This document shows positions 1 to 15,250 of a stretch of DNA of 15,250 nt, piece by piece. How positions within the stretch are numbered: the stretch's first letter is position 1; each line of letters starts with the position of its first letter. The notes below the pieces were generated by a model that worked only from the letters and a program-made list of their open reading frames with translations, made no database searches and was not told where the DNA came from. The translations under genes were made by a program, and so were the position numbers. This DNA comes from a bacterium (GTDB lineage: Bacteria; SM23-31; JAUVVT01): contig JAUWXV010000068.1 of NCBI GenBank assembly GCA_030616165.1, positions 1-15,250 on the forward strand, read 5' to 3'.

Positions 1-33
1 AAGAAAGTAAGTATTAATTTAAAATATAACTAA

Positions 34-103
34 TACGGGGCTTTTGAAAAGGCAGATAGGGTGCCCTATCAACTCTATTCTGCCTTTTTTTTTGGCCCCC
101 GTA
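34..103 (+). terminator. Composite hairpin with T-tract, copy 1
   Basis: Three nested pairings are visible. An outer stem pairs TACGGGG (34-40) with CCCCGTA (97-103). A middle stem pairs AAAAGGCAGA (47-56) with TCTGCCTTTT (79-88). An inner hairpin TAGGG-TG-CCCTA lies at 57-68. Nine T residues (85-93) follow GCC, so the middle stem alone looks like an intrinsic terminator. It could end an upstream transcript or act as an attenuator in the receptor leader. The outer stem goes beyond a simple terminator. Confidence 0.6.
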
Positions 104-142
104 AAATAAAATCTTATCTGAGAAAAAAAAGAACACTACTAT

Positions 143-158
143 TAGTGATGTATCACTA
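143..158. promoter_or_regulatory. 16-bp inverted repeat, possible operator (copy 1)
   Basis: TAGTGAT-GT-ATCACTA is a perfect 7-bp dyad with a 2-bp centre, followed at once by AT-rich TATAAATATATGG. The form is typical of a homodimeric repressor site, but no regulator is encoded in the window and the family cannot be named. Confidence 0.4.
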
Positions 159-232
159 TATAAATATATGGAAAAAAAAATAAATAATCAAGAAAAAATT
201 TCAGATACATTAAATTAATGATGTGAACTAAA

Positions 233-238
233 TATAAT
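233..238 (+). promoter_or_regulatory. Possible -10 element (copy 1)
   Basis: An exact TATAAT, with only a poor -35 (TTAAAT at 210-215) at 17-bp spacing. The matching position in copy 2 (558-563) is TATTAT. The region is very AT-rich, so chance matches are likely. Confidence 0.25.
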
Positions 239-358
239 AAATGCGATTTACAATAAGTATTTACTTACTCAAATATATTTTAGAAAGGAGGTGATAGTGA
301 ATATAATATAAAGGAAGTAAAAAAGAAAAAAGCAAATATTAATTTAAATATAAATAAA

Positions 359-428
359 TACGGGTCTTTTAAAAAGGCAGATAGGGTGCCCTATCCACTC
401 TATTCTGCCTTTTTTTTTGGCCCCCGTA
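359..428 (+). terminator. Composite hairpin with T-tract, copy 2
   Basis: Same fold as copy 1. The middle stem is 372-381 with 404-413, the inner hairpin is unchanged, and the T-tract is 410-418. The outer stem is shortened to TACGGG/CCCGTA because one G became T. It lies about 275 bp upstream of the receptor start and downstream of copy 1's -10-like element, so a transcript starting in copy 1 would have to read through it. Confidence 0.6.
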
Positions 429-467
429 AAATAAAATCTTATCTGAGAAAAAAAAGAACACTGCAAT

Positions 468-483
468 TAGTGACGTATCACTA
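468..483. promoter_or_regulatory. 16-bp inverted repeat, possible operator (copy 2)
   Basis: This is the copy 2 version of the dyad, TAGTGACGTATCACTA, with one change that breaks one symmetric pair. The flanking AT tract is identical to copy 1. Confidence 0.38.
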
Positions 484-604
484 TATAAATATATGGAAAA
501 AAAAATAAATAATCAAGAAAAAATTTCAGAGATATTAAATTAATTATGTGAACTTGATATTATAAATGCGATTTACAATAAGTATTTACTTACTTAAATA
601 TATT

Positions 605-620
605 TTAGAAAGGAGGTGAT
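605..620 (+). promoter_or_regulatory. Extended Shine-Dalgarno-like site without a start codon (also at 280-295)
   Basis: TTAGAAAGGAGGTGAT matches, over 16 nt, the complement of the 16S rRNA 3' end known from many bacteria. It is identical in both repeat copies. In copy 2 no ATG, GTG or TTG stands at normal spacing. In copy 1 a GTG at 297 opens only a four-residue frame ending at TAA 309-311. The receptor has its own AAGGAGG 72 bp further on, so this site may be a ribosome standby site or a base-pairing element. Confidence 0.5.
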
Positions 621-691
621 AGTTAGAATTAATAGTTTTTTAGTACATAAATGTACAGTGGATTAAATTATCTAAAAAGAAGGAGGTAAAG

Positions 692-3600
692 ATGAGAAAA
701 AAGTTACTTTTCAGTTTTATGTTGGTTTGTGTAGCCCTCTTTGTTTACCATGGAACGACATCAGCCGGTGTTACAGGGAAAATCGCAGGAATTATTACAG
801 ATGCTTCCACAGGTGAACCAATGCCGGCGGTAAATGTTGTTATTGAGGGTACTACCTTGGGAGGAGCAACGGATAATGAGGGTCATTACTTCATAATAAA
901 CATTCCTCCCGGGACTTATACATTACAGGCATCTATGGTGGGATACGCGGTTGAGAGCAAAACTGGGGTACTTGTTAGTGTTGATCATACGACTCCTATT
1001 GATTTTGACCTGAGAGTTACCGCCATAGCAGGAGAAGAGGTAACAGTAATTGCTGAGAGGGAGATAGTTCCAATGGATATTTCGGCAAGCCATATCGTTG
1101 CGGAAGCTGGGCAAATAGTGGAAGTTCCACTTATTACCGATATTGCGCAGTATATTCATCTGCAGGCTGGAATTGAAGGTGATTTTATCCGAGGTGGAGG
1201 ATTAGACCAGACCGAGTTTATGTTGGATGGATTGATGATGGTGGATAACAGGTCAAATAAACCTATGATGATGGTTAATCTCAGTGCCGTGAGGGAACTC
1301 AGCATTATCAAGGGAGGTTTTAATGCCGAATATGGTAATGTTCGTTCCGGACTAATTAACGTTGTCACCAAGGAAGGTTCGCCGAGTGTATATCATGGTT
1401 CAATTGATTACAGGTATAGTCCGGATCATTATAAACATAAAGGTCCAAACTTGTTTAGTCCTGAAAATTACTATTTGAAGCCATTTCTTGACCCTGCTGT
1501 TGCCTTTGTGGGTACTGAGAACGGAACCTGGGATCAATATACGAAGGACCAAAATTTATATTTTGGGGGATGGATCAAATATTCTGCAGATCTTATAGCG
1601 GACGGCCTTCCAGAAAACGATATGACACCAGTACAGGCTCAGCAAAGATTTATGTGGCTTCATACGACTGAAGGAAGTGCTGCCCTTGGGCAGAATGAGC
1701 GGCCTTATGGTAATAAGCCCGACTGGGTCGTGGATGCAAGTTATGGCGGTCCAGTGCCTGTAATTGGTAAATATTTGGGCGACTTGAGTTTCTTTGTTTC
1801 TTATCGGAATAATTGGGAACAGTTTGGAATGCCCACTTACAGAGAATACTACAAGGAAATGAGTACACATTTGAAGTTGACATCTCGTATAACTTCATCA
1901 ATGAAATTAACGGTCGAGGGATTGTATGGAACGATTAGTTCGGTTGCAAGGGGACTGCAAAATAACGATGGCGCCGGACCTGTTTCAAGCGGAACTGATA
2001 TATTTGGGAGAATCGGTGATGGTGACCCCGATGAATGGGAAGTATTAGGTTTATATTATCCTTCTACACTGGGTCCACATGACGTCTGGCGCGGTATGCA
2101 GGGAATAGCTTTCGACCACGTTCTGAGCCCGAGTACATTTTATAATATCAGAATCTCTCATGTTCACGAAAAGAATCATGCCGCACATAATGTCGAACTA
2201 CGAGACCAGACGACTGTCAGGCATTTTGGAAATCAAGCACAAGATATGTCGCCTTACGGAGCTATGCAGGGGGGTGGACCTTTACTAATGGTGAACAATA
2301 TGTATTATGGCGCCCACAGTGCTGGAGCTATAGAATTGTCAGGTTCACATACCATTAATGCTAAATTTGATATAACAAGCCAGGTCGATAGATATAACCA
2401 GTTTAAAGCTGGTTTTATGTTTGTTTATGATGACCTTGATACACATTGGGAACATGTAAGATGGGAATCCCCGACTGACAACTTTCTGGTTCAATGGGAG
2501 CATTTTCCATACCGTATGGGGGCTTATCTTCAGGACAAACTCGAGTTTGAGGGGATGATTGCTAACTTTGGTCTGAGGATGGATTACAATCAACCAAATA
2601 CTGAATGGTATGACCTGGAGGCTGATAGATATAACAAGTATTTTAAAAAAGAATATAAAGCGGTTTTTACCGAAGTTATGCCGAGAAAGGAGGCAGAAGG
2701 TCAAATAAAAATTAGTCCGCGTTTAGGAGTGTCTCATCCAATCTCTGAAAATGCAAAACTCTACTTTAATTATGGACATTTTTATTCAATGCCTTCATCC
2801 ACGAGTATGTATGATATACGATACGGACAGATATTTGAAGGGGTTATAAACATAGGTAATCCAAATGCAAATTTACCAAGAACGGTATCTTATGAGTTAG
2901 GAGTGGAATATAATGTCCGAGACCTGTTCCTGATTCATTTATCCGGTTATTATAAGGATGTTGGTGACCAAACAAGCTCTGTAGGGTACACAAGTTACGA
3001 TGGTACTGTTAACTACACAACTACTTCTAACCAGAACTATGAAGATATAAGAGGCTTTGAACTGAGAATTGAAAGGCGTTTTGGACAATGGGTTACTGGA
3101 TGGTTTAATTATAACTATATGGTAAGCACAGAAGGATGGATTGGACGAGAAGAATACTTTGAGGACCCGAGAGAGCAGATTCTGTTTGGATTGTATAATC
3201 CAAGACAGGAGAGACCCCTTGCCCGCCCCACACTCCGCAGTAATATTAATATCAGGACTCCCAGAAATTTGGGACCAGGTCCAACAATAGGTGAAGCAAA
3301 GATTCTTGGCGATATTAACGCGTCTTTCCTTTATACCTGGAGGGCAGGAAGATATTCGACGTGGGACCCATTGGAGACCGGTGAATTAGATAGAAATGTG
3401 CAGTGGAAGGGTTCCTGGTATCTTGATGCAAGATTCGGTAAGAGACTGCAATTTGGGAAATATAACATTCAAGTCTTTGCGGATATCAACAATATTTTAG
3501 ACCATGATGTTCTTAGTTCAAGGGGTTTTGCAACTGATGATGATGAGAGAAGGTATATGGAATCGTTACACCTGGAGATGTACAAAGACCCAGAATATGA

Positions 3601-3742
3601 AGTTTACACTGGTGGAGACGATAAACCTGGAGAGATTGGTGGTCCGGGTACGGATAAATCTTATATAGATATGCCAGACCTTACACATTATACATTTTTT
3701 AACCCGAGAACTATCTTTATAGGAATAAAAGTTGATTTTTAA
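692..3742 (+). CDS. TonB-dependent receptor with carboxypeptidase-like N-terminal domain
   Basis: Outer-membrane beta-barrel transporter that would import a large or scarce substrate using TonB energy. A signal peptide (about 1-25) is followed by a carboxypeptidase-regulatory-like beta-sandwich (about 28-115, with GKIAGIITDASTGEPMPAVNV and PPGTYTL). A TonB-box-like EEVTVIAE lies near residue 118. The plug (about 140-235) shows FMLDG, VRELSIIKGGFNAEYGN and GLINVVTK. The rest is barrel, ending in a terminal Phe after FIGIKVDF. At 1016 residues it has normal length. AGGAGG about 7 nt upstream supports the ATG. It is followed after 35 bp by the secreted protein gene, probably in one operon. It is not a clear SusC: no SusD partner is present. 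The substrate cannot be read from sequence; the downstream sulfatase cluster hints at a glycan. Confidence 0.93.
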   Translation: MRKKLLFSFMLVCVALFVYHGTTSAGVTGKIAGIITDASTGEPMPAVNVVIEGTTLGGATDNEGHYFIINIPPGTYTLQASMVGYAVESKTGVLVSVDHTTPIDFDLRVTAIAGEEVTVIAEREIVPMDISASHIVAEAGQIVEVPLITDIAQYIHLQAGIEGDFIRGGGLDQTEFMLDGLMMVDNRSNKPMMMVNLSAVRELSIIKGGFNAEYGNVRSGLINVVTKEGSPSVYHGSIDYRYSPDHYKHKGPNLFSPENYYLKPFLDPAVAFVGTENGTWDQYTKDQNLYFGGWIKYSADLIADGLPENDMTPVQAQQRFMWLHTTEGSAALGQNERPYGNKPDWVVDASYGGPVPVIGKYLGDLSFFVSYRNNWEQFGMPTYREYYKEMSTHLKLTSRITSSMKLTVEGLYGTISSVARGLQNNDGAGPVSSGTDIFGRIGDGDPDEWEVLGLYYPSTLGPHDVWRGMQGIAFDHVLSPSTFYNIRISHVHEKNHAAHNVELRDQTTVRHFGNQAQDMSPYGAMQGGGPLLMVNNMYYGAHSAGAIELSGSHTINAKFDITSQVDRYNQFKAGFMFVYDDLDTHWEHVRWESPTDNFLVQWEHFPYRMGAYLQDKLEFEGMIANFGLRMDYNQPNTEWYDLEADRYNKYFKKEYKAVFTEVMPRKEAEGQIKISPRLGVSHPISENAKLYFNYGHFYSMPSSTSMYDIRYGQIFEGVINIGNPNANLPRTVSYELGVEYNVRDLFLIHLSGYYKDVGDQTSSVGYTSYDGTVNYTTTSNQNYEDIRGFELRIERRFGQWVTGWFNYNYMVSTEGWIGREEYFEDPREQILFGLYNPRQERPLARPTLRSNINIRTPRNLGPGPTIGEAKILGDINASFLYTWRAGRYSTWDPLETGELDRNVQWKGSWYLDARFGKRLQFGKYNIQVFADINNILDHDVLSSRGFATDDDERRYMESLHLEMYKDPEYEVYTGGDDKPGEIGGPGTDKSYIDMPDLTHYTFFNPRTIFIGIKVDF

Positions 3743-3777
3743 GAGGATAAACTAAATAAAAATAAGGGAGAATAATT

Positions 3778-5973
3778 ATGAAAAAGATTTCTATAATAAT
3801 GGCATTGTGTGTTATATTGTCTGTATTTGTGTATAATACTGCAGATGCCGGTGCTTTTCAGTGGTTAAAAGTGGGAAAACTACATGTCAAGGTATGGGAT
3901 AATGGTCATGAAAGTCAAGCAAATGGTAATGATTTTGCGAGTTATTATTTTTATCATGCATATAGAAATTGGCATCGTGGTTCAAGTTTGCGGATGGGCG
4001 CCAGAGACTTTACAGACCAAAATGGCGTATATTGGCCCGTCAAGTTAGCCGGTATGGCACATGACGTAGCTGATGAGGTTGTCAACATGTTTCCCAGGGA
4101 AGATGCTGAATTTCTGACTTTTCGAAGATATACAAGGTATGCACTTCCAACAATTAAAGTTGATGGCTTCTTTATGAATGACCCGTTCCCACAGGCAGGA
4201 GATGAGGTAGCCCCGGATAAAATTCTTGGAACTGCAGATATGATGTTTGAATCACATATTGGGACATGGATGGGGGTGGATATTCATCAGAGAGTACTTG
4301 TCTGGAGTCAAAGGAATCATGATGACTATGCAATATACGATATGACATTAACAAATACTGGAAATGTGGACAGGGATGAAGAGATTGAACTACCAGATAA
4401 TACGTTATTAGATTTTTACTTTTTGAGGGAAGCGCAGTTTTTTGTTAATAGAGAGGAAGTAGAATGGATGACCTGGGATGGTTGCCGTCCCGGGGAGCCC
4501 CTGAGGATAATGTATAGTTATCCTGCCAGACAATCAGGCCACTCTTGGGATAGGTTTGGTGGTGCCAGGGAATGGGGATGTCTCAGAGGTCCGATATTTG
4601 GTGGAGAAGTTGTTGTTAATGTTCCCACGTCTGTGGATAACCCCACAAACGACCAATCTAAACCAAATGTCCATTATGTGAGGGGTCCTGATGACCTTGC
4701 TTTTAGTCACTCATCCGAAACGAAAGGTCCATCTGACCATATTTTAGTTTACGATGTAATGCAGCAAGGCTATAATGTGGTCAGGGGGACGCCGTATATG
4801 GAGGGCACGTATCCGGGGACACTGCATGATATGCCACACGACGAACGCGGTGGTAAATTTCTGGATGATGATGATTGGTGGTTCTGGCATGAGGTAGTTG
4901 GTAATTCCAGTGGACCTTATCCTGAAATAAAAATTGGAGAATCCCTTCGTTTTGTCTGGGCTTATGTAGGGGGAAGTATTTCACCCGAAATGGCCTGGAT
5001 AAAAGGTGGGGAATGGATAAATGGAACAATTGAACCACCGGAAGGAAATGTATTAGGAGTATCCGATAACTTGCCCAAACAATATAAAAATCATCCGGAC
5101 CTTTATGCGACAGACGCCCTGGCAAGTGAGTATTACAACTGGGCTAAGGACTGCTGGATTATGACAGGCAAGGATTCACTTTTTCAAAATGGGATTAATG
5201 CCGTAAAGAACTTTCAGAACGATTACAATGTGCCAACTGGACCGCCGCCTCCATCAATCGAGGTAAACTCGAAGCCTGATAAAATAGAGATAAATTGGGG
5301 CAGCGAATCGGAAACAGCATCTGATTTTGCCGGCTATAGAGTATTTAGGGCTGAAGGACGTCCGGGCCTCAACTATAATATATACTACGATAGAGAATAT
5401 CACCCTGAGTATTCGTGGAAAATGATTTTTGAATGCGGCGATGGAACCGCGAATGCTCTTACTCACAGCCATGCAGATGCTACAGCTGATCGCGCTAAAG
5501 CATATTTTTATTATGTGATTGCATTTGATGATGGGATTGGAAATATAGCTGATGTTAATGGTAAAATAGAGAGCCTCGAGAGCGGAGAATCTTTAAATAT
5601 GACAACTCGTGCGGCATATTTGACGAGAGCACCGGGAGCGAAGTTATCCGACATTAGGGTCGTTCCTAACCCGTTCAATATTGGTGCTGAAGAACTGCAA
5701 TATCCTGGTGAGGAGCTTAAGATTATGTTTTTGGATGTGCCTGGATACTGCACTATCAAGATTTACAGTGAAAGTGGTGATTTAGTCCAGACCCTGGAGC
5801 ATACCGATGGCTCCGGTGATCAATCATGGGGAGATATTGGAGATGAACATTTAGTTACTGAAACAGGCCAGGTTATCGTGAGTGGGATTTATATTGCAGT
5901 AATAGAAGAAAATAATGCAGACGGCACATCAACTGGCAATACACATTTTGTAAAATTTGTAATAGTTAGGTAA
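3778..5973 (+). CDS. Secreted multidomain protein with Fn3-like and C-terminal sorting-like domains
   Basis: Exported, probably surface-associated protein of unknown role. A signal peptide (about 1-25, ending ADAG) precedes a large Trp- and Tyr-rich beta domain (about 26-485) that I do not recognise. A Pro-rich linker near 488 leads to a fibronectin III-like module (about 490-605, with KIEINW, FAGYRVFRA and YYVIAFDDG). The C-terminal module (about 622-731) has the VVPNPFN start, IKIYSESGDLVQTLE and a late VSGIYIAVIEE strand. That pattern is typical of type IX secretion sorting domains and of FlgD-like Ig folds, which are hard to tell apart by eye. GGGAG upstream supports the ATG. The place between a TonB receptor and a PorV-like protein suggests a partner in cell-surface binding. 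No catalytic motif was seen. Confidence 0.85.
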   Translation: MKKISIIMALCVILSVFVYNTADAGAFQWLKVGKLHVKVWDNGHESQANGNDFASYYFYHAYRNWHRGSSLRMGARDFTDQNGVYWPVKLAGMAHDVADEVVNMFPREDAEFLTFRRYTRYALPTIKVDGFFMNDPFPQAGDEVAPDKILGTADMMFESHIGTWMGVDIHQRVLVWSQRNHDDYAIYDMTLTNTGNVDRDEEIELPDNTLLDFYFLREAQFFVNREEVEWMTWDGCRPGEPLRIMYSYPARQSGHSWDRFGGAREWGCLRGPIFGGEVVVNVPTSVDNPTNDQSKPNVHYVRGPDDLAFSHSSETKGPSDHILVYDVMQQGYNVVRGTPYMEGTYPGTLHDMPHDERGGKFLDDDDWWFWHEVVGNSSGPYPEIKIGESLRFVWAYVGGSISPEMAWIKGGEWINGTIEPPEGNVLGVSDNLPKQYKNHPDLYATDALASEYYNWAKDCWIMTGKDSLFQNGINAVKNFQNDYNVPTGPPPPSIEVNSKPDKIEINWGSESETASDFAGYRVFRAEGRPGLNYNIYYDREYHPEYSWKMIFECGDGTANALTHSHADATADRAKAYFYYVIAFDDGIGNIADVNGKIESLESGESLNMTTRAAYLTRAPGAKLSDIRVVPNPFNIGAEELQYPGEELKIMFLDVPGYCTIKIYSESGDLVQTLEHTDGSGDQSWGDIGDEHLVTETGQVIVSGIYIAVIEENNADGTSTGNTHFVKFVIVR

Positions 5974-5995
5974 ATATTTGAAAATAGAAAATTTT

Positions 5996-6032
5996 CCCGA
6001 CCCTGTCCCGCCTAAGGCGGGACAGGGTCGGG
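5996..6032. repeat. Perfect 17-bp inverted repeat (intergenic palindrome)
   Basis: CCCGACCCTGTCCCGCC (5996-6012) pairs perfectly with 6016-6032 around a TAA loop. It is far more GC-rich than its surroundings. It has no T-tract, so it is not a normal terminator. The next gene's AAAAGGAGG begins 3-4 bp later. The form resembles dispersed extragenic palindromes; in RNA it could protect the upstream mRNA end or reduce expression of the gene behind it. Confidence 0.9.
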
Positions 6033-6050
6033 ATTAAAAGGAGGTATATA

Positions 6051-7043
6051 ATGAAGAAATTGACTTTATTATTGACTGTTGTTTTTCTCTGTATGGTCGT
6101 TGCAATGCCTGCCCATCCGGTTTTAAAGAAAACTGCTCAAACCGGTCTTCAGTTCTTAAAGGTTGATGTCGGAGCCCGTCCTGCTGCTATGGGTGGTGCA
6201 TTTATGATGGTCGGGAATGATGCCAGTGCCATGTTTTATAATCCCGCCGGTATAGCCGCGATGCGTTCAACTTCTGACATTTTTGTCAGCAGGACAGAAT
6301 GGATAGTTGACATAAAATATAATGCTGCAGCATTTGTGCAAAATTTCGGGAATTGGGGCAACGTCGGCGTTAGCTTTATCTCAAGTGATTACGGTGAAAT
6401 AATAGGTACCCGGGTTGCAGATACAGAGAAGGGCTTTATAGAGACAGGAAATGTAGATGTTGATGCTTATGCAGTGGGTTTGGCATATGCAAGACAAATG
6501 ACAGACAAGTTCACGTTAGGTGGTCATATTAAGTATGCGAAACAGCACTTAGGGGAAAATCTTTTTCCTGATGATGAGACTGTAAAAAACGAAGTCACCG
6601 GTCTTGCATACGACTTTGGGACTATATTTTACCCTGGATTCAGGAGTTTCAGTGTCGGAATGAGCATTCGAAACTTTTCTCCGCAGTTCAAATATCAGGA
6701 AACGGCGTTTGAACTGCCGCTGACGTTTACGCTCGGCTTTGGCATGGATATTTTTGATTTTCTGCCGTCACTTCAGGAGAGTCAATCTCTGGTATTGGCT
6801 GTCGATGCTGTCCATCCACGTGATTACACAGAGAGAATTCATATTGGAGGAGAATACTGGTATATGGATATGATAGCACTTCGTGTTGGATATAAATACA
6901 ATTACGATGAGGAGGGTATATCTGCGGGAGTTGGTATTAAATATGCCGTTGAAGGAGGATTTGGCATAAAGATTGATTATTCCTATAGTGACTTAGGAGT
7001 CTTTGATGAAGTAAACAGATTCTCTATTGGAGCTTCATTTTAA
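6051..7043 (+). CDS. PorV/PorQ-family outer-membrane protein
   Basis: Predicted FadL-like outer-membrane barrel of 330 residues. A signal peptide (about 1-22) is followed by the family hallmark: GLQFLKVDVGARPAAMGGAF (about 32-51) and DASAMFYNPAGIAAM (about 57-71). Alternating amphipathic strands continue to a terminal Phe (SIGASF). In type IX systems PorV carries cargo with a C-terminal sorting domain to the attachment complex; many relatives in uncultured FCB-group bacteria are unassigned. The upstream gene ending in a sorting-like domain makes a cargo-handling role reasonable, but this is inference. AAAAGGAGG at 6036-6043 fixes the ATG. The gene is last in its set, and a strong terminator follows. 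A 17-bp hairpin just before its ribosome-binding site may lower its expression relative to the two genes upstream. Confidence 0.9.
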   Translation: MKKLTLLLTVVFLCMVVAMPAHPVLKKTAQTGLQFLKVDVGARPAAMGGAFMMVGNDASAMFYNPAGIAAMRSTSDIFVSRTEWIVDIKYNAAAFVQNFGNWGNVGVSFISSDYGEIIGTRVADTEKGFIETGNVDVDAYAVGLAYARQMTDKFTLGGHIKYAKQHLGENLFPDDETVKNEVTGLAYDFGTIFYPGFRSFSVGMSIRNFSPQFKYQETAFELPLTFTLGFGMDIFDFLPSLQESQSLVLAVDAVHPRDYTERIHIGGEYWYMDMIALRVGYKYNYDEEGISAGVGIKYAVEGGFGIKIDYSYSDLGVFDEVNRFSIGASF

Positions 7044-7565: not shown

Positions 7566-8957
7566 ATGAAGCGACGTGATTTTTTGCGGGATTTGGTTGT
7601 TAAAGTTCCTGTGGCTGCCTTGGCTTTGCAAACATTGTCATGTCAAAGGACGAGCACTCGCAGACCAAATATTGTATTAATAAATACTGATGACCTTGGT
7701 TATCGTGACCTTGGTTGTTATGGTAACACTGAGATAAAAACCCCCAATATAGATCGCTTAGCCTATGAAGGAGTCCGCTTTACAGATTTTTATGTGACCT
7801 GTCCTGTCTGCACCCCATCCCGGGGCAGCCTTTTAACGGGACGTTACCCACAGCGAAACGGATTATATGAATTGATAAGAAACAACGAGGTAAACTTTAA
7901 ATATCAGTTCGATGAAGTAATGTATGCAACATCTCCGGAAATGACATTGGGTCTGGACTTACGTGAAATAACTATTGCTCAAGTGCTCAAAGAACCGGGC
8001 TACACTACTGGAATCTTTGGGAAATGGGACAGTGGTCGTGCACGACGGTTCCTTCCTCTTCAGCGTGGTTTCGATGTTTTCTATGGTTTTGCAAATACTG
8101 GTATCGATTATTGGACACATGAGAGGTATGGAGTACCCTCGATGTTCAGCGGTAATGAACGTATAAAAGAAAAAGGTTACGCAACCGACCTTTTCCGACG
8201 GGAGGCAGTTAATTTTATCAGGGAGAATAAAGACAAGTCAATTTTTCTTTATGTTCCATTTAATGCGCCTCATGGTCCATCCAACTTCGAGCGCACCGGT
8301 ATGCAGGCACCGGATAATTACATTCGTATGTATGGAGACCCTCCCGGGAGTAATCGGATGCGTTATATGGCGGCGGTAACTTGTATGGATGCGGCTGTTG
8401 GCGAGATACTCTCTGTTCTGAGTGAATTCGGGCTTGAGGAAAACACTCTTGTGATTTTCACCAGCGATAATGGTGCCGGCGGGACTGGGGACAACATGCC
8501 TCTGCGCGGGGGTAAATCCCAGATGTTTGAAGGTGGTATTCGTATTCCTTTTATTGCCCGATGGCAGGGACATATCCCAAAAGGGAGAGTATGCAGCGAG
8601 TTTTGCAGTACACTTGAACTTTTTCCAACTTTTACTGCTGTTGCAGGAGTCAAGCCGCCAAAGGGTGTTATTCTCGATGGATTTAATATGCTGCCTATCC
8701 TGACAGGTCAAGCAAAGTCAGTAAGAAATGAGATGTTCTGGGAATGGCGGTATGGTAGAGCTGCCCGAGTAGAAAATTGGAAGTGGGTTGATTCTCCAAA
8801 AGGTGGAGGTTTGTTCGACCTTTCGACCGACATTAGCGAACAACATGACCTTTCAGTAGAGAAACAAGAGACCATTCAGGACATTAAAGCGCGATGGGAA
8901 GTATGGAAAAAGGAGATGGATGAAGCAGAACTGCGTGGACCTTTCAAGAATTACTAA
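7566..8957 (+). CDS. Exported Cys-type sulfatase (arylsulfatase family)
   Basis: Hydrolyses sulfate esters, most likely on a carbohydrate. The N-terminus KRRDFL followed by a hydrophobic stretch is Tat-like; TLSC at 23-26 could be a weak lipobox. Metal site NTDDLGY (D42, D43) precedes the sulfatase signature CTPSR at 82-86, so C82 would be converted to formylglycine by a maturase that is not in this window. H236 (APHGP), D301-N302 (TSDNG) and K317 (LRGGKS) fit the other family positions. The usual GKWHLG motif reads GKWDSG at 152-157, with Asp for His. At 463 residues it is full length. The ribosome-binding site is weak (AAAGAG); the Tat motif right after the ATG supports this start. It opens the five-gene catabolic run. 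The substrate is unknown. Confidence 0.94.
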
Positions 8958-9129
8958 CATGCCTCTCGACAAGATTCTAAAGTAATATTCTGAGCGGATG
9001 AAGTACAATAACAAATACCGAAAGATATACAAGTTTTAAAACTCAGGAGATTATTCACAAATGAAATTGTTAAGGGAAATTATGTTGGGAAAGTGGAGGT
9101 AAAACTAATAATCGAAAAGGGGAATAATT

Positions 9130-10635
9130 ATGAATAAGAAGATTTATATAAAATCAGATGATTCAAATTCTAAAACAAACTTTTTTTTAAATAGACTCAA
9201 TACCATTATTTTGTGTGCAGTTTTTTGTATCACCGTTCTTACCTTGGTAATTGGATGTGGTCAGAGGGACAAAAATGAGATAGTTTTAGGCAAGTTAACT
9301 ATTGATGCCGGTGATTACGACCGAATTAATACACCTATTCGGTATCAATGTCTGCCAGCAGACATTTTTGGTGACCCGGCAAAGTTCCAGCGGCCTGGAT
9401 TTTTTCATTACATCGATAATGGAGCGGACCTGTCATTGCTCCGCGACAATCACCTTGTTCTTATTGAGGAAGGAGGGGCAAAATCCAGGATAGAAGTGCA
9501 GTGGGCTCCTGAAATCGACTTCGACTGGGAAAAAGTTACTGGGAAAGGGGCTCTTGTATGGATTCTCGATGGTAAAACAACAAAGGGAACAAAAAGAACC
9601 TTTAAACTTGTTTTAGAAGAAGGGGAAGCTCCTCCTGGTCCATTTACAATAGGTGATATCGACAATAAACAACTATTGGTGAGGTTTGGCGAGCGAGAGG
9701 TTTTACGTTACAATTATGGAATCATCCAGCAGAAAAAAGGAGAGCCTGGAGCTTATGATAGAGCTGCATATATTCATCCAGTCTGGACACCGACTGGCAA
9801 GGTTATTACGGGTGATTTTTCACCGGAACATATTCATCAACGAGGAATATTTTTTGCATGGAGGCAAATAAAGTTCAGTGATGTTGAGGCAGATTTCTGG
9901 TCATTAGGTAAAGAACCAGGCAGAAAATTGCCAGATGAGTTAGGTCCCAGCATAGAGACAGGACCGGTTTTCGCAGAACTTGACATTTTTAATAAAGGTA
10001 ATGTCGGAGACAAGACATATATGAGAGAAACTTGTGCAGTCAGAGTTTATGCACTGCCAGAAGAAGATGTATGGCTTTTTGATATGTATTTGCGTCAGAT
10101 GCCGGTGGACCCTGAAAATCCTCGAATAATTCCGACAGAAGTTACAACTGCTACTGTGATTGTGGATGGGAAGGTAAAGCGAATACGAAAAGAAGAAGTG
10201 GAAGGGGGTATTTCTATGAATTTGGAGAAATATCTGTATGGAGGTATGACATTTCGAGGTATTGGTGAATGGCTTCCTGAGGATGTTTCTCTTGATGTTC
10301 TGACAAGTGAAGGAAAGACCCGTGTAGATGCCAACGAGACTCAAGCACAATGGATTGACTTCACGGGACCCCTGGGAGATGAATGGGGTGGATTGGTAAT
10401 ATTTGACCATCCACTAAATCAACGTTACCCGACACCATTAAGGGTTCATCCCCAATTGCCATACTTCTGTTATGCATTCACTCAAAATGAACCTTATACG
10501 ATTTATAATAATGCACCGCTTGATTTGGTATATCGTTTTCTTGTTCATACGGGTCGTCCCGATAAGGAAATAAATGAACGGTTCGCCAATGACTATGTCA
10601 ATCCACCAGAGGTTAGCTGGGAACCTTTGGAATAA
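9130..10635 (+). CDS. DUF6807 (PmoA-like) family lipoprotein
   Basis: A 501-residue envelope protein. A long N-terminus with a hydrophobic segment (about 24-42) ends in the lipobox VIGC, giving lipidation at C43. The core matches the DUF6807 family, often labelled PmoA: LRYNYG, YIHPVWTPTGKVITGDF and HIHQRGIFFAW, a His-rich conserved block at about 215-245. Despite the label, the sequence has no multi-spanning membrane layout and is not a methane monooxygenase subunit. The biochemical role is not established to my knowledge; members usually sit among sugar-catabolic oxidoreductases and TIM-barrel proteins, as here. GGGG 7 nt upstream supports the ATG. The 172-bp gap behind the sulfatase holds no clear terminator, so cotranscription is possible. 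Confidence 0.86.
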   Translation: MNKKIYIKSDDSNSKTNFFLNRLNTIILCAVFCITVLTLVIGCGQRDKNEIVLGKLTIDAGDYDRINTPIRYQCLPADIFGDPAKFQRPGFFHYIDNGADLSLLRDNHLVLIEEGGAKSRIEVQWAPEIDFDWEKVTGKGALVWILDGKTTKGTKRTFKLVLEEGEAPPGPFTIGDIDNKQLLVRFGEREVLRYNYGIIQQKKGEPGAYDRAAYIHPVWTPTGKVITGDFSPEHIHQRGIFFAWRQIKFSDVEADFWSLGKEPGRKLPDELGPSIETGPVFAELDIFNKGNVGDKTYMRETCAVRVYALPEEDVWLFDMYLRQMPVDPENPRIIPTEVTTATVIVDGKVKRIRKEEVEGGISMNLEKYLYGGMTFRGIGEWLPEDVSLDVLTSEGKTRVDANETQAQWIDFTGPLGDEWGGLVIFDHPLNQRYPTPLRVHPQLPYFCYAFTQNEPYTIYNNAPLDLVYRFLVHTGRPDKEINERFANDYVNPPEVSWEPLE

Positions 10636-10700
10636 GTAATTATGTAAAAAATGCTATAAAGTATAAGATAATAATATATTAAGTACGAAAGGAGTGAACA

Positions 10701-11996
10701 ATGTCAAAATCAGATAAATTCGATGATTTAAAAGGTAATAAGAAGAAAGGCTTATCAAGGCGTGAGTTTCTCGGATACAGCAGTGCCGCCGTTGTTGGGG
10801 CTGCTCTTGCAAAGCCGAGTTTTGGTAAAAGTAATGACCCTCATGTAAAACCCGAAACAGGTATGAAATACCGCAGACTGGGGAGGACAAATTTAATGAT
10901 TTCTGTGATTGGTCTGGGAAATGCAAGTGGTTCGCTTTCCCGGCAACTCGGTCCTTTTCTTTTTGACAAGTGGCTGATGGAGCGTGGAGCAGCTGTCAAT
11001 AAACTGCTTGACCTTGGCGGTAATTTTACATCTACGAGCACAAGCTACCATAACACAGTGGAACTTTTGGGTAGTGCGCTGAAAAACAGGAGAGATGAGG
11101 TTTACTATGCTATTGGGACATCCGGGTCTGGAGAAAGAATGCGCGCTAAATTTGAGAAAGCCCTCAAAGACTTGCAAACTGACGTAATTGACCTTGTTTT
11201 TTCTCACGGTACTGGTGATGAAGCAGCATTTGAAACCATGCACAAATTAAAAGATGAAGGGAAAATACGCTTCGTTGGCATGAGCTGTCATGATCCACGT
11301 CTTCATGAATGGGCAATAAAAAATGATTATCTTGATTGGCTACATATACCTTATAACCGCTTAGGCATGATCAAGCAGGGTTCTGCGGATATCCCTGGTG
11401 TTGAAAGAGTAATCAAGTTGGCAAAAGAAAAAGATGTAGGTGTAATCATTATAAAACCAATGACAGGGAACTTTATACCGTACTGGGCAAAGCAGACTTC
11501 TGAACCCGAGATACAAGAAATTATGAAAAAACTCAGAGATTATGGTCCTCAAAACCTTTACCAGGCTATGATTAAGTGGATAATCCAAAATCCGAATGTT
11601 ACAGCATGTGCAGTTGGGATGGATACTGTTCAGCAGGTTGTTGAGGATGTTGAGGCAGTAACATCATTTGAAATCACTGCCCATCAGGAAGAACTGTTAG
11701 AACTTTACGCAGGAGTTGCCGATAAGGATTACTGCAGGTTATGCACAACGTGTGTTCCCCACTGTACAAAAGGAATTCCAGTTCCAGATATTTTACGCTT
11801 TCGTATGTATTATAACAACTACGGTTGGGGAGATTATGCAAAGAGTTTATACAATGAATTGCCTGATTATCAGAAAGTTACACAATGTGATGACTGCGGG
11901 ATGTGTGAGAGCCATTGTCCGCATCAGTTAAAAATCGTAGAAAAATTACAAGAAGCACACTCTATATTGGCAGAAGAAAAAACACTATTTGCTTAA
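10701..11996 (+). CDS. Tat-exported aldo/keto reductase with two C-terminal 4Fe-4S motifs
   Basis: Oxidoreductase of the iron-sulfur aldo/keto reductase group. SRREFLG (19-25) and a short hydrophobic stretch form a Tat signal. The barrel starts at MKYRRLGRTNL (55-65). The C-terminus has CxxCxxCxxxC twice, C345/C348/C351/C355 and C396/C399/C402/C406, as in bacterial ferredoxins. Two of four expected catalytic residues look lost: the FDTAPSY region reads TSTSTSY, so the Asp is S111 (Tyr kept as Y116), and the ATK Lys position is G139 in YYAIGTS; H169 is kept. AAAGGAGTG upstream fixes the start. The Tat signal fits export of a folded cofactor protein. It may oxidise or reduce a sugar-derived carbonyl in the periplasm using electrons rather than NADPH, or have lost classical activity. 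The substrate is unknown. Confidence 0.9.
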   Translation: MSKSDKFDDLKGNKKKGLSRREFLGYSSAAVVGAALAKPSFGKSNDPHVKPETGMKYRRLGRTNLMISVIGLGNASGSLSRQLGPFLFDKWLMERGAAVNKLLDLGGNFTSTSTSYHNTVELLGSALKNRRDEVYYAIGTSGSGERMRAKFEKALKDLQTDVIDLVFSHGTGDEAAFETMHKLKDEGKIRFVGMSCHDPRLHEWAIKNDYLDWLHIPYNRLGMIKQGSADIPGVERVIKLAKEKDVGVIIIKPMTGNFIPYWAKQTSEPEIQEIMKKLRDYGPQNLYQAMIKWIIQNPNVTACAVGMDTVQQVVEDVEAVTSFEITAHQEELLELYAGVADKDYCRLCTTCVPHCTKGIPVPDILRFRMYYNNYGWGDYAKSLYNELPDYQKVTQCDDCGMCESHCPHQLKIVEKLQEAHSILAEEKTLFA

Positions 11997-12138
11997 TAAC
12001 TATCTCACTGTCAGTAAAATAATAGAAAAACATGAGAGACATATTTTAAAGTTTGTTATGAATATTTGATACTTGCTCGAACACATGAAAGTTTATTTTA
12101 GTAAACGAGAAAATTATTTAAAAGAAGGAGTTATTTCA

Positions 12139-13146
12139 ATGAGCAAAGAGGGCAAACTTAATATAAAAGGAGTTACAAGACGCGAGTTTTTAACCGGGTT
12201 AGCAGCAGCCGGAACTGCAGTTAGCTTACATTCGGGCGGCTTAATTGGAAAAGTGCAGTCAAAGAGCCGAAATCGAGTCTCATTATGCATTTTCTCAAAG
12301 CACCTTCAATGGCTCGATTACGAGGGAATGGCAGAGAGTGCGGCAGAAGTTGGTTTCGATGGAGTTGCCCTGACTGTTAGACCCCGCGGACATGTTCTTC
12401 CAGAAAGGGTGGAGGACGACCTTCCTAAAGCCGCAGAGGCTGTGAAGAAAGCTGGTATTGAAATTTCAATGATGACTACAAATATCTCAGACCCCGATGA
12501 CCCTAATACAGAGAAAATCTTACGGACTGCATCAAAACTTGGTATTGGTTATTATCGATTTGGATATTGGTATTATAACGAAAAAACAAGTATTTTCGAA
12601 CAATTGAAAGAAATCAAGTCAAAAATGCGTGATTTAGCAGAGATGAATAAACAGTATAGGATTTTCGGTGGAAATCAAAATCATTCAGGTACTCGTTATT
12701 TCGGGGCATCTGTATGGGATACATGGGAACTTGTAAAGGATTTAGACCCTGCTTTTATTGGTTTCCAGTTTGATCCTCAGCATGCTTTTACTGAAGGAGG
12801 TGGCGGTTCATGGTTGACTGATGCTCGTCTTGCATTACCGCACACTAAGATGCTCGCATTAAAGACACATGCCGAATGGGGAAGTTCAGAATGGAAAAAG
12901 AGTTCAAGAAAGAGTGAAAAGAAATGGGAAATCCTTACCCCTGATGAATTAAAATGGTATTTCAGATTATTAAACAAGACTGGATTCTCTGGTCCGGTCT
13001 CTATACACTATGAGTTCCCTGGTTTGGGTGGAGTAGAGGGAGGAGCAAGAAAATTAGAGGGAATTACAAAAAAAGAACTTTTTACAATTTTTCGAAGAAA
13101 TCTTAAAATCCTGAGAGGTATGCTGAGCGAAGCGAATATATTGTAA
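12139..13146 (+). CDS. Tat-exported sugar isomerase/epimerase-like TIM-barrel protein
   Basis: A 335-residue protein of the xylose-isomerase-like TIM-barrel superfamily. VTRREFLTGLAAAGTA (12-27) is a Tat signal. Likely metal ligands match sugar epimerases of this fold: D212 and H215 (FQFDPQHA), H244 (LKTHAEW) and E292 (SIHYEFP). The first ligand, normally Glu, lies in GGNQNHSG (177-184), where N179 or N181 takes its place. A longer frame opens at TTG 12073, but AAGGAG at 12125-12130 with 8-nt spacing and the Tat motif favour the ATG at 12139. The next gene starts 2 bp after its stop, so the two are probably translated together. The expected role is isomerisation or epimerisation of a periplasmic sugar; the names sugar phosphate isomerase would mislead, since an exported enzyme is unlikely to see sugar phosphates. 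Confidence 0.89.
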   Translation: MSKEGKLNIKGVTRREFLTGLAAAGTAVSLHSGGLIGKVQSKSRNRVSLCIFSKHLQWLDYEGMAESAAEVGFDGVALTVRPRGHVLPERVEDDLPKAAEAVKKAGIEISMMTTNISDPDDPNTEKILRTASKLGIGYYRFGYWYYNEKTSIFEQLKEIKSKMRDLAEMNKQYRIFGGNQNHSGTRYFGASVWDTWELVKDLDPAFIGFQFDPQHAFTEGGGGSWLTDARLALPHTKMLALKTHAEWGSSEWKKSSRKSEKKWEILTPDELKWYFRLLNKTGFSGPVSIHYEFPGLGGVEGGARKLEGITKKELFTIFRRNLKILRGMLSEANIL

Positions 13147-13148
13147 AT

Positions 13149-14486
13149 ATGGTCAATTACCTCCAAAATATAATAAAAAAAACAATGAGTAAAAAAATTC
13201 TGATAAAATCTGTTAATTCTAATTTTGAAAGAGAACCCTTAATAAGACCTTTTGGTTTTAAAGGGATATATCAAAATGAGTTCTGGGTATCGGCCGCACT
13301 TCTTGAGAGCGATTCCGGGAACAAACAGGTTGGACTTATGACGCAATGTTTGGCATGGTCTGATATAGATGTATTTCTGGCTCATTCTGAAGCCGGCGGA
13401 AATTTACTGTTATACTTAACATTGGAGCATGCATTACAGGAAATCAAGGGGACAACATTCAGCAATCCTCTTGAGCTTCAGGAGACCATCCTGAACAGTA
13501 TTCACGAGTATGGCAAGAAGATTACTGAAAACAAAAAACTGCGGATGACTTTCACCTTAAGTTCATTAGTTGCTTTAGATAATGCAGCGTGGATGCTTTA
13601 TGCACAGGAAAATAATATTCCCAATTTTGATGAGATGATTCCAGAAGAGTTCAGGCCTGCTTTATCATATAGACACAAGAGAGTTGCACACGTTCCATTA
13701 ATGTCTTATGCCGTTCCCTTGAGCGAAATAGAAGATGCGGTGAAACAGGGGTACTTTTTTATGAAAATAAAGATTGGCAGACCAGGAACTCAAGAGGAGA
13801 TGCTGGAGGGAGATAAAGCAAGAATCGAGGCTATTCATAAACTTATAGGGCATATCAGGACACCCCACACGGAAAACGGGAAACTTCCTTACTACTTTGA
13901 CGCCAATGGCAGATATGAAAAAAAGGAAACGCTCCAGCGGCTGTTGGGCCACGCTAAGAAAGTCGGCATGTTTGACCAGATTGCAGTCATTGAAGAACCC
14001 TTTCCTGAAGAGGCTGATATAGAGGTGGGTGATTTGGGTGTAAGAATCGCAGCGGATGAGAGTGCGCATACAGCCGAAGATGTGAAAAAGAGAATACAAA
14101 TGGGTTATGGAGCGATTGCTTTGAAGTCCGCAGCCAAAACACTCAGTATGACTTTGAGGATGGCAAAAGTTGCTTATGAAAACAATATTCCCTGTTTCCT
14201 GGCTGACTTAACCTGCACACCAATTTTGGTCGATTGGAATAAAAATATAGCGGCTCGGCTGGCTCCATTTCCCGGGATAAAAGATATGGGATTATTGGAA
14301 TCTAATGGTCATCAGAACTATGTTAGATGGAAAGAACTTGTCGGTTATCACCCTTATCCAGATGGTTCATGGATAGAATCAAAGAATGGCTTGTATCATC
14401 TGGATAAGGATTTTTATGAAAAAAGTGCAGGGGTTCTTATTTCTTCAGAGCATTATATGAGTTTATTTGAACGTGAAGGAAATTAA
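13149..14486 (+). CDS. Enolase-superfamily protein (muconate-lactonizing/mandelate racemase-like)
   Basis: A 445-residue cytoplasmic enzyme expected to abstract a proton next to a carboxylate. The barrel shows the superfamily set: KIK at 206-208, metal ligands D251 (YFDANGRY), E282 (VIEEPFP) and D303 (AADESAH), and K326 (IALKSAAK). A KxK on one side and a Lys on the other is the muconate-lactonizing enzyme/dipeptide epimerase/OSBS layout rather than the His-Asp pair of mandelate racemase and many sugar-acid dehydratases. It has no signal peptide, unlike the four genes before it. The ATG at 13149 begins 2 bp after the previous stop with no Shine-Dalgarno, which suggests reinitiation; an ATG at 13185 (MSKKILIK) is an alternative. 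The exact reaction and substrate cannot be assigned. It ends the plus-strand run. Confidence 0.87.
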   Translation: MVNYLQNIIKKTMSKKILIKSVNSNFEREPLIRPFGFKGIYQNEFWVSAALLESDSGNKQVGLMTQCLAWSDIDVFLAHSEAGGNLLLYLTLEHALQEIKGTTFSNPLELQETILNSIHEYGKKITENKKLRMTFTLSSLVALDNAAWMLYAQENNIPNFDEMIPEEFRPALSYRHKRVAHVPLMSYAVPLSEIEDAVKQGYFFMKIKIGRPGTQEEMLEGDKARIEAIHKLIGHIRTPHTENGKLPYYFDANGRYEKKETLQRLLGHAKKVGMFDQIAVIEEPFPEEADIEVGDLGVRIAADESAHTAEDVKKRIQMGYGAIALKSAAKTLSMTLRMAKVAYENNIPCFLADLTCTPILVDWNKNIAARLAPFPGIKDMGLLESNGHQNYVRWKELVGYHPYPDGSWIESKNGLYHLDKDFYEKSAGVLISSEHYMSLFEREGN

Positions 14487-14582: not shown

Positions 14583-15250
14583 TCAATGCACAAAATTCCC
14601 TTCTTTCCTCGTATTTTTGCCTGTAATTACTATATCATTTGATGTACCTTTGTTGACACGGTTATAATTTATTATGTTATAATCAGAATTTCCTGTTTCT
14701 TCTATTGCCGATTTCATAGTTTTTGTATAACTGTCATCGATAATTATGTTATAACTAATTATACTATGTGAAGTATTTTGAAGAAAGATACCTGAAAACT
14801 TATTCGGAGATTTTCCGGATGGATTTTTAATTGTGTTTCCTGTAATGTTGATGTATTTATTCTCACTTCCGATAATGTAGATTCCACCTTCCAATGGCTT
14901 TACCATTGTATTACCGGAAATAGAGACATTATTTACATCTTTCATTACAATTCCGTAAATTCTGTCATCGGGACCACCACTAAAAATATTACCAGATATG
15001 GTAATGAAATTACTTCCTTCGGTTTCTATAGAATTACGGTTTGACATATCAAAGGCATTCCCGGTAATAGTAACTCCCTTTGCGTTAATAATACGAAGTT
15101 CTCCCGGTTGTCTTAAAATGTTGCCTGTTAAAACAATACCATCACATTTTTCATCCAGGACTACAGATGCCTCCTTACAATTTTCAAGCATATTCCCGGT
15201 AATAATTGAACCGAGTGCATTTACAAACTGAATGCAGTATTTGGTATGGT
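14583..15250 (-). CDS. Right-handed parallel beta-helix protein, C-terminal part
   Basis: The frame stays open to the window edge, so the N-terminus and any signal peptide are missing. The visible part of about 222 residues is a run of short beta-helix coils marked by recurring ITGN or ISGN turns: GSIITGN, IVLTGN, VTITGN, ITISGN, VSISGN and INITGN, spaced roughly 21-37 residues apart. An ATG at 15191 lies in the middle of this pattern and is not the likely start. Such folds occur in pectate-lyase-like polysaccharide lyases, glycoside hydrolases, NosD-like proteins and adhesins; no catalytic residues can be assigned in this C-terminal part. The gene points toward the catabolic run, and a polysaccharide-acting role would fit that setting, but this is only context. 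Confidence 0.85.
   Translation of the reverse strand, partial: HTKYCIQFVNALGSIITGNMLENCKEASVVLDEKCDGIVLTGNILRQPGELRIINAKGVTITGNAFDMSNRNSIETEGSNFITISGNIFSGGPDDRIYGIVMKDVNNVSISGNTMVKPLEGGIYIIGSENKYINITGNTIKNPSGKSPNKFSGIFLQNTSHSIISYNIIIDDSYTKTMKSAIEETGNSDYNIINYNRVNKGTSNDIVITGKNTRKEGNFVH

What the first reader, a model, noticed from the sequence alone, without database searches (positions are those of the whole stretch)
1..623. Tandem 325-bp leader repeats with unevenly conserved blocks upstream of a TonB receptor
Two copies at exactly 325-bp spacing differ at about 22 of 298 positions with no gap. Changes fall mainly between blocks: hairpin and flank 51-130 has one, AT tract 151-200 none, extended Shine-Dalgarno end 271-298 none. 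That pattern suggests a structured regulatory unit under selection, possibly a multi-copy leader or a tandem small-RNA family, rather than a neutral duplication. It matches no leader family I know.
Basis: partly seen in the sequence, partly recalled or inferred. Interest (0 to 1): 0.7.

Follow-up and report, generated by a model that had tools for sequence, protein, structure and literature searches.

The report
Ribosome-binding decoy sites before a receptor
The leader in front of an outer-membrane nutrient-receptor gene carries repeated, very strong ribosome-binding sites with no start codon behind them; the same kind of orphan site sits before all seven sister receptors of this uncultured bacterium and before receptors of a more distant relative, which suggests that parked ribosome subunits protect or feed these messages.

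Summary
In detail: 1-298 and 326-623 are gap-free copies, 325 bp apart, with 22 differences. The contig breaks inside the array; contig C65 continues upstream with a third, degenerate module end. The 'uneven conservation' is weak evidence (P 0.011 by site, 0.25 by mutation event), and the identical AT tract has no relative elsewhere. Two elements do recur: the GGCAG/CTGCC terminator-like hairpin (two of six sister leaders, inverted in one) and, above all, the 'extended Shine-Dalgarno' end. AGAAAGGAGGTGAT is complementary to the 16S 3' tail over 14 nt (-23.5 kcal/mol; true SD about -14), has no usable start codon, and a version of it sits 74-81 nt upstream of the ATG in all seven paralogous TonB receptors. 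Sense-strand sites number 22 in 11 leaders, antisense 0, shuffled about 2. Another family of the class has such sites before its two closest receptors, in otherwise unalignable leaders. The anatomy resembles STAB-SD (cry3A), an SD without a start codon that holds a 30S subunit and stabilises mRNA. But RNase J, which STAB-SD blocks, was found in none of six class genomes, RNase E/G in five. Most likely: a 30S-docking leader that protects or preloads receptor mRNA, expanded here in tandem. Function untested.

The parts
1..298 (+). Repeat copy 1 (first 141 nt also end contig C65; array continues upstream there)
326..623 (+). Repeat copy 2, 93% identical to copy 1, no gaps
34..103 (+). Long hairpin of copy 1: inner GGCAGA../..TCTGCC stem then T9, closed by outer ACGGGG/CCCCGT stem; terminator-like
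   Evidence: -35.9 kcal/mol, z -6.35; core pattern
359..428 (+). Same hairpin in copy 2; one outer pair lost (G40 corresponds to T365)
282..295 (+). Orphan extended SD, copy 1 (AGAAAGGAGGTGAT); longest frame from it has 4 codons
607..620 (+). Orphan extended SD, copy 2; no start codon in range; about 85 nt before the ATG; a version is present in all 7 paralogous leaders
594..691 (+). Last leader segment, shared with the paralogous receptor genes (77-88% over 83-100 nt)
678..687 (+). True SD of the receptor gene (AGAAGGAGGT)
   Evidence: predicted about -14 kcal/mol to the 16S tail
692..3742 (+). TonB-dependent receptor with CarboxypepD_reg domain; first 240 codons about 87% identical between paralogs, barrel about 55%
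3778..5973 (+). 731-aa probably exported protein, second gene of the duplicated operon
6051..7043 (+). PorV-like protein, third gene; 91-92% DNA identity between paralogous operons

Best explanation
The functional core is the orphan Shine-Dalgarno site, not the 325-bp block. In RNA the sequence AGAAAGGAGGUGAU can pair with the 3' tail of 16S rRNA over 14 nt, but no usable start codon follows, so a 30S subunit can dock without starting translation. The docked 30S shields the long AU-rich leader from 5'-end-directed decay (here more likely by RNase E/G than by RNase J), and may also pass subunits on to the weaker true SD about 70 nt downstream. The receptor mRNA is thereby kept abundant. In the window gene the module has been multiplied: (degenerate SD) - hairpin - SD - hairpin - SD - gene. 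Each hairpin is terminator-like and would stop transcription entering from upstream, so the functional mRNA would start after hairpin 2 and carry the last orphan SD, or read through and carry more. Shown: repeats, orphan SDs, their position and strand bias, presence in a second family, predicted pairing strength, ribonuclease gene content. Inferred: 30S binding, protection, transcript ends.
For: Orphan SD at -74 to -81 in all seven own paralogs, predicted -13 to -23.5 kcal/mol against -13.6 to -14.2 for the true SD. 22 sense sites in 11 leaders against 0 antisense and about 2 in shuffles; two of the 22 may belong to a small ORF in G003:C130 and one (C308 -619) lies in coding-like sequence. Of 13 AAGGAGGTGAT in the genome (2 for the reversed pattern), 7 lie in these TonB leaders without a usable start and 1 before a large exported protein on C141. 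The site is kept where the DNA directly upstream differs: C198/C308 lack the preceding region, the window has a different upstream altogether. In another family of the class (G003) the two closest receptors have 11-nt matches at -119 and -125, reached by 0 of 300 shuffles each, in leaders that do not align. Published precedent: an SD without start codon stabilises mRNA (PMC4113751, PMC3997798).
Against: No RNA data. The seven own leaders are paralogs that share 5' ends through duplication or gene conversion, so they are not seven independent cases. The 16S 3' end of this genome is not assembled; pairing uses the general bacterial tail. RNase J was not found, and the review states that in E. 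coli a ribosome bound at the 5' end does not protect lacZ mRNA from RNase E, so protection at a distance would need another basis. More distant receptors in G002, G004, G005 have no orphan site. Predicted accessibility of the site is not high (mean unpaired 0.19-0.64).
Confidence: 0.45

Rival explanations
1. Ribosome standby or multiple-RBS loading: the orphan SDs raise local 30S concentration and feed the true SD; mRNA stability is not the point.
For: Fixed short distance (-74 to -81) to the ATG and weaker true SD; engineered leaders with several RBSs raise output by recruiting ribosomes (PMC9723656).
Against: SD1 at about -350 to -740 and the window copy at -406 are far from the gene; the engineered sites have start codons.
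Confidence: 0.22
2. Small upstream reading frames: the SDs start short leader peptides that couple to the receptor gene or sense translation.
For: G003:C130 has TTG 4 nt after the SD and a 37-codon frame whose TAA overlaps the receptor ATG (read from the sequence printed); some own leaders have a GTG or TTG start with 4-7 codons.
Against: No start codon in range in C26 copy 2, C158, C198, C239, C141 and G003:C132; no conserved peptide with its own start.
Confidence: 0.12
3. Tandem small RNAs: each unit runs from near the orphan SD to the T9 terminator of the next unit (about 130 nt) and acts in trans on receptor mRNAs or ribosomes.
For: Terminator-like hairpin with T9; TATAAT just before the SD in C317, C239, C222 and at the C65 end (sequences); multicopy sRNAs control SusC genes in Bacteroides (PMC11697453).
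Against: The SD-to-hairpin unit exists only in the window array and C158; no good promoter before the SD in the window copies; no seed against start regions was found or systematically sought.
Confidence: 0.1
4. Neutral debris: duplicated leader ends and terminators left by operon rearrangement, with the SD preserved only because the duplication or gene conversion is recent.
For: Operon ends are homogenised (leader plus plug region, PorV) while the middle diverges; difference clustering is not significant by events; the C158 insert resembles the window only from SD to hairpin.
Against: Strand bias 22:0 and presence in G003 leaders that do not align.
Confidence: 0.11

Closest known systems
STAB-SD of Bacillus thuringiensis cry3A (Agaisse and Lereclus 1996, as reviewed in PMC4113751)
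   Same: SD-like sequence in the 5' UTR that can pair with the 16S 3' end, not used for initiation, roughly 100 nt before the gene
   Different: Different phylum; several copies per leader; 14-nt pairing; RNase J, whose progress STAB-SD blocks, not found in the class; no stability data here
5' polypurine stabilisers of Bacillus and of mycobacterial katG (PMC3997798, PMC2358910)
   Same: Ribosome binding to a purine-rich leader site prolongs mRNA life
   Different: The katG site is the gene's own RBS, four bases before the start codon; here the site is separate from the true SD
Engineered multi-RBS leaders (PMC9723656)
   Same: More than one ribosome-binding site before one gene
   Different: Those initiate translation at each site; these have no start codon
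FopS sRNA family controlling SusC genes in Bacteroides thetaiotaomicron (PMC11697453)
   Same: Multi-copy RNA element linked to control of TonB/SusC-type receptors
   Different: FopS are separate trans-acting sRNAs binding near start codons; here the element is in cis in the leader and no transcript is known

Membership tests
STAB-SD mRNA stabiliser | SD-like sequence in 5' UTR complementary to 16S 3' end | tested here: met
   14-nt match, -23.5 kcal/mol; own 16S not assembled, general tail used
STAB-SD mRNA stabiliser | Does not direct translation initiation | tested here: inconclusive
   No usable start codon in most copies, but initiation itself not measured; G003:C130 may have a small ORF
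[quoted passage not shown]
   No RNA data; TATAAT directly before the site in some paralogs only
STAB-SD mRNA stabiliser | Blocks the 5'-3' exonuclease RNase J | tested here: not met
   TIGR00649 below cut-off in 6 of 6 class genomes, best 36 bits against 400; genomes are 63-90% complete
STAB-SD mRNA stabiliser | Mutation of the site shortens mRNA half-life | not testable with these tools
   Bench experiment
Curated RNA family / riboswitch leader (Rfam 15) | Covariance-model match at gathering score | tested here: not met
   window, none; related leaders, only two sub-threshold hits outside the leaders
Tandem small-RNA family | Own promoter and terminator per unit, discrete transcript | tested here: inconclusive
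   Terminator-like hairpins found, no convincing promoter in the window units; no RNA data
MITE / REP-like dispersed repeat | Many dispersed copies with terminal inverted repeats | tested here: not met
   Full block only here; hairpin core only in receptor leaders plus one shorter site on C327

The most novel reading that the evidence does not exclude
A lineage without RNase J uses arrays of start-codon-less, full-length Shine-Dalgarno sites as 30S docking stations in the leaders of its nutrient receptors: an mRNA-protection or ribosome-loading system that arose apart from the Bacillus STAB-SD/RNase J system and is copied and expanded with the receptor gene family.
Probability: 0.3. Interest if true: 0.7.

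Novelty: new variant of a known kind. Interest (0 to 1): 0.5.

Why it matters
Start-codon-less SD sites that stabilise mRNA are described from Bacillus and explained by RNase J. Repeated, stronger-than-normal orphan SDs before receptor genes in a class where RNase J was not found would show either that docked 30S subunits protect mRNA from RNase E-type decay or that they load ribosomes; a reporter can tell these apart. It may also give a way to spot highly expressed surface genes in uncultured genomes.

Tried and rejected
Whole block as a dispersed family: own-genome DNA search finds only itself, the C65 overlap and short pieces. Mobile element (MITE/REP): too few copies. Rfam family: none. 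Compensatory evolution in the hairpin: three differences between the copies, none compensatory; outer stems of window and C158 differ in sequence yet both pair, but three or four sequences are too few. Pairing of SD2 (UAGAAAGG) with the conserved ACCUUUCUA of the long leaders: partner not kept in C308, C198, C158, absent in the window. Pairing of the SD with the hairpin loop (CUAUCA): lost in copy 2 and C158. Leader peptide from the GTG inside the SD: no upstream SD for it and no codon-level signal. The GTDB contig scan brought only distant receptors (45% or less) without orphan SDs in the ones inspected. CsrA binding to GGA motifs was considered and not tested.

Full report
What was checked. 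The window is contig C26 of a 3.74-Mb, 343-contig draft genome, 90% complete. The two copies 1-298 and 326-623 are real, gap-free, 93% identical, 22 differences. Window 1-141 equals the last 141 nt of contig C65 exactly, and the search found it in no other contig; an overlap of this kind at two contig ends is what a k-mer assembler leaves at a branch, so C65 most likely lies directly upstream (inference). On C65, 39 nt before window position 1, stands a third, degenerate module end TTTAAATATAATCTTAGAAAGGGGTGGTG, followed in register by a spacer like that between copies 1 and 2. The gene before it on C65 is a 245-aa lipoprotein-like frame.

Is the uneven conservation meaningful? With 22 sites placed at random the two longest difference-free runs reach the observed sum in 1.1% of draws; with neighbouring differences merged to 14 events, in 25%. 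Two young copies cannot show selection this way. Outside evidence is needed, and it separates the blocks: the AT tract has no relative elsewhere; the hairpin core recurs in leaders C158 and, turned round, C239; the SD end recurs in all seven receptor leaders.

The receptor family. Six further genes in this genome encode receptors whose first 119 residues are 80-89% identical to the window's. Identity stays near 87% to residue 240 and falls to about 30-70% in the barrel. Synonymous differences are 0.20-0.36 per site in the first 240 codons and about 0.55 beyond, so the 5' ends are younger than the barrels: shared by gene conversion or recombination, not only by protein constraint. The following 731-aa protein is about 50% identical, and the PorV-like gene is 91-92% identical in DNA: conserved ends, variable middle.

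The leaders. Six of the seven share a leader of several hundred nt: a TTGACA / 17 nt / TATTTT promoter-like site (similar sites before other genes), an orphan SD1 AAGGGAGGT, a conserved block of about 200 nt and, in four of them, a GTATA-N5-TATAC-like site; then orphan SD2 and the true SD. The window gene shares only the last 100 nt, from just before SD2; its upstream part is the 325-bp array. C158 has the full leader plus one insert of the same plan: SD, hairpin, other DNA, SD. C198 and C308 lack the region just before SD2 yet keep SD2. SD2 is thus the clearest leader element present in all seven besides the true SD.

The orphan SD. AGAAAGGAGGTGAT is complementary to the general bacterial 16S tail over 14 nt; predicted -23.5 kcal/mol in C26 (both copies), C239, C222, C317, and -13 to -19.5 in the other three, against -13.6 to -14.2 for the true SDs. 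Start codons in range downstream are absent in most copies; where present in these leaders the frame has 4-7 codons. In 11 leaders the sense strand has 22 sites at -12 kcal/mol or better, the antisense none, shuffles about 2 in total. Caveats: seven of these leaders are related; one site (C308 -619) lies in coding-like sequence; two (G003:C130) may serve a 37-codon frame starting TTG and ending TAATG over the receptor start (sequence). In the genome AAGGAGGTGAT occurs 13 times (reversed pattern 2): seven in these leaders, one before a large exported protein (C141), one 157 nt before a gene on C326, the rest ordinary SDs or inside genes.

Other genomes. The class is thinly sampled here (one genome of the same family, four others). 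In G003, another family, the two nearest receptors have AAGGAGGTGAT at -119 and AAAGGAGGTGA at -125, although these leaders align neither with each other nor with the window beyond the SD and AT-rich stretches (best match E 0.002). In G001 the nearest receptor has AGAAAGTGAGGTGAT at about -280. Receptors tested in G002, G004, G005 have none, and more distant ones at most 8-nt matches; LCP-89 and Neomarinimicrobiota receptors show none.

Mechanism. The closest described thing is STAB-SD in cry3A: an SD in the 5' UTR that does not initiate translation, binds 30S and stops RNase J1. The general rule for Bacilli is that a strong SD, even without a start codon, stabilises long downstream RNA; in E. 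coli a ribosome held at the 5' end did not protect lacZ from RNase E. RNase J is below cut-off in six of six class genomes, RNase E/G clearly present in five. So the element works like a STAB-SD in anatomy but is not filed as one, because its defining nuclease was tested and not found. I favour 30S docking that protects the AU-rich leader and/or preloads the true SD; the two cannot be told apart here. The hairpins are strong (-35.9 kcal/mol, z -6.35) and terminator-like, and would insulate each module from upstream transcription.

Novelty. New variant of a known kind: multiple orphan SDs per leader, stronger than the true SD, in an uncultured lineage whose nearest named receptor relatives are in LCP-89, Neomarinimicrobiota and Bacteroidota, apparently without RNase J. 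All functional steps are inferred.

Noticed in passing
window 594-7043; L025, L027: Paralogous TonB-p731-PorV operons have homogenised ends (leader plus plug, PorV 91-92% DNA identity) and a diverged middle (barrel, p731), a cassette-like pattern pointing to gene conversion.
   Followed up: partly
window 1-141 and contig C65 12675-12815 (L030): Exact 141-nt overlap of two contig ends: the assembly broke inside the tandem array; repeat number or strain variation is unresolved.
   Followed up: partly
L022, G000:C239:6367-6405: The GGCAG/CTGCC hairpin lies in the opposite orientation relative to the receptor gene compared with the window and C158.
   Followed up: partly
L150, L152, L154 (G001:C239, G000:C251, G003:C366): Leaders of an RRM RNA-binding protein share an SD-like site about 165 nt upstream and a conserved CTACCTC (anti-SD-like) element followed by AYATTAT-like sequence; looks like an autoregulatory leader without Rfam match.
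   Followed up: partly
L048 258-391 (G003:C130): Receptor leader with several SD-like sequences in a row and a possible 37-codon TTG-started frame whose stop overlaps the receptor ATG (TAATG).
   Followed up: partly
L063/L133, G000:C141:31252-31263: The same orphan SD stands before a large exported repeat-rich protein (MKTKLFVIVIAIALVFG...), possibly a major surface protein.
   Followed up: partly
class genomes G000-G005: No RNase J over cut-off in any of six genomes; RNase E/G over cut-off in five.
   Followed up: yes
window 7566-14486: Downstream genes encode a sulfatase, a DUF6807 protein, an aldo/keto reductase with ferredoxin domain, a xylose-isomerase-like TIM barrel and an enolase-superfamily protein: a likely sulfated-sugar catabolic cluster.
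   Followed up: no
window 14583-15248, minus strand: Open frame with repeated ITGN/ISGN motifs, probably a right-handed beta-helix protein, running off the contig end.
   Followed up: no
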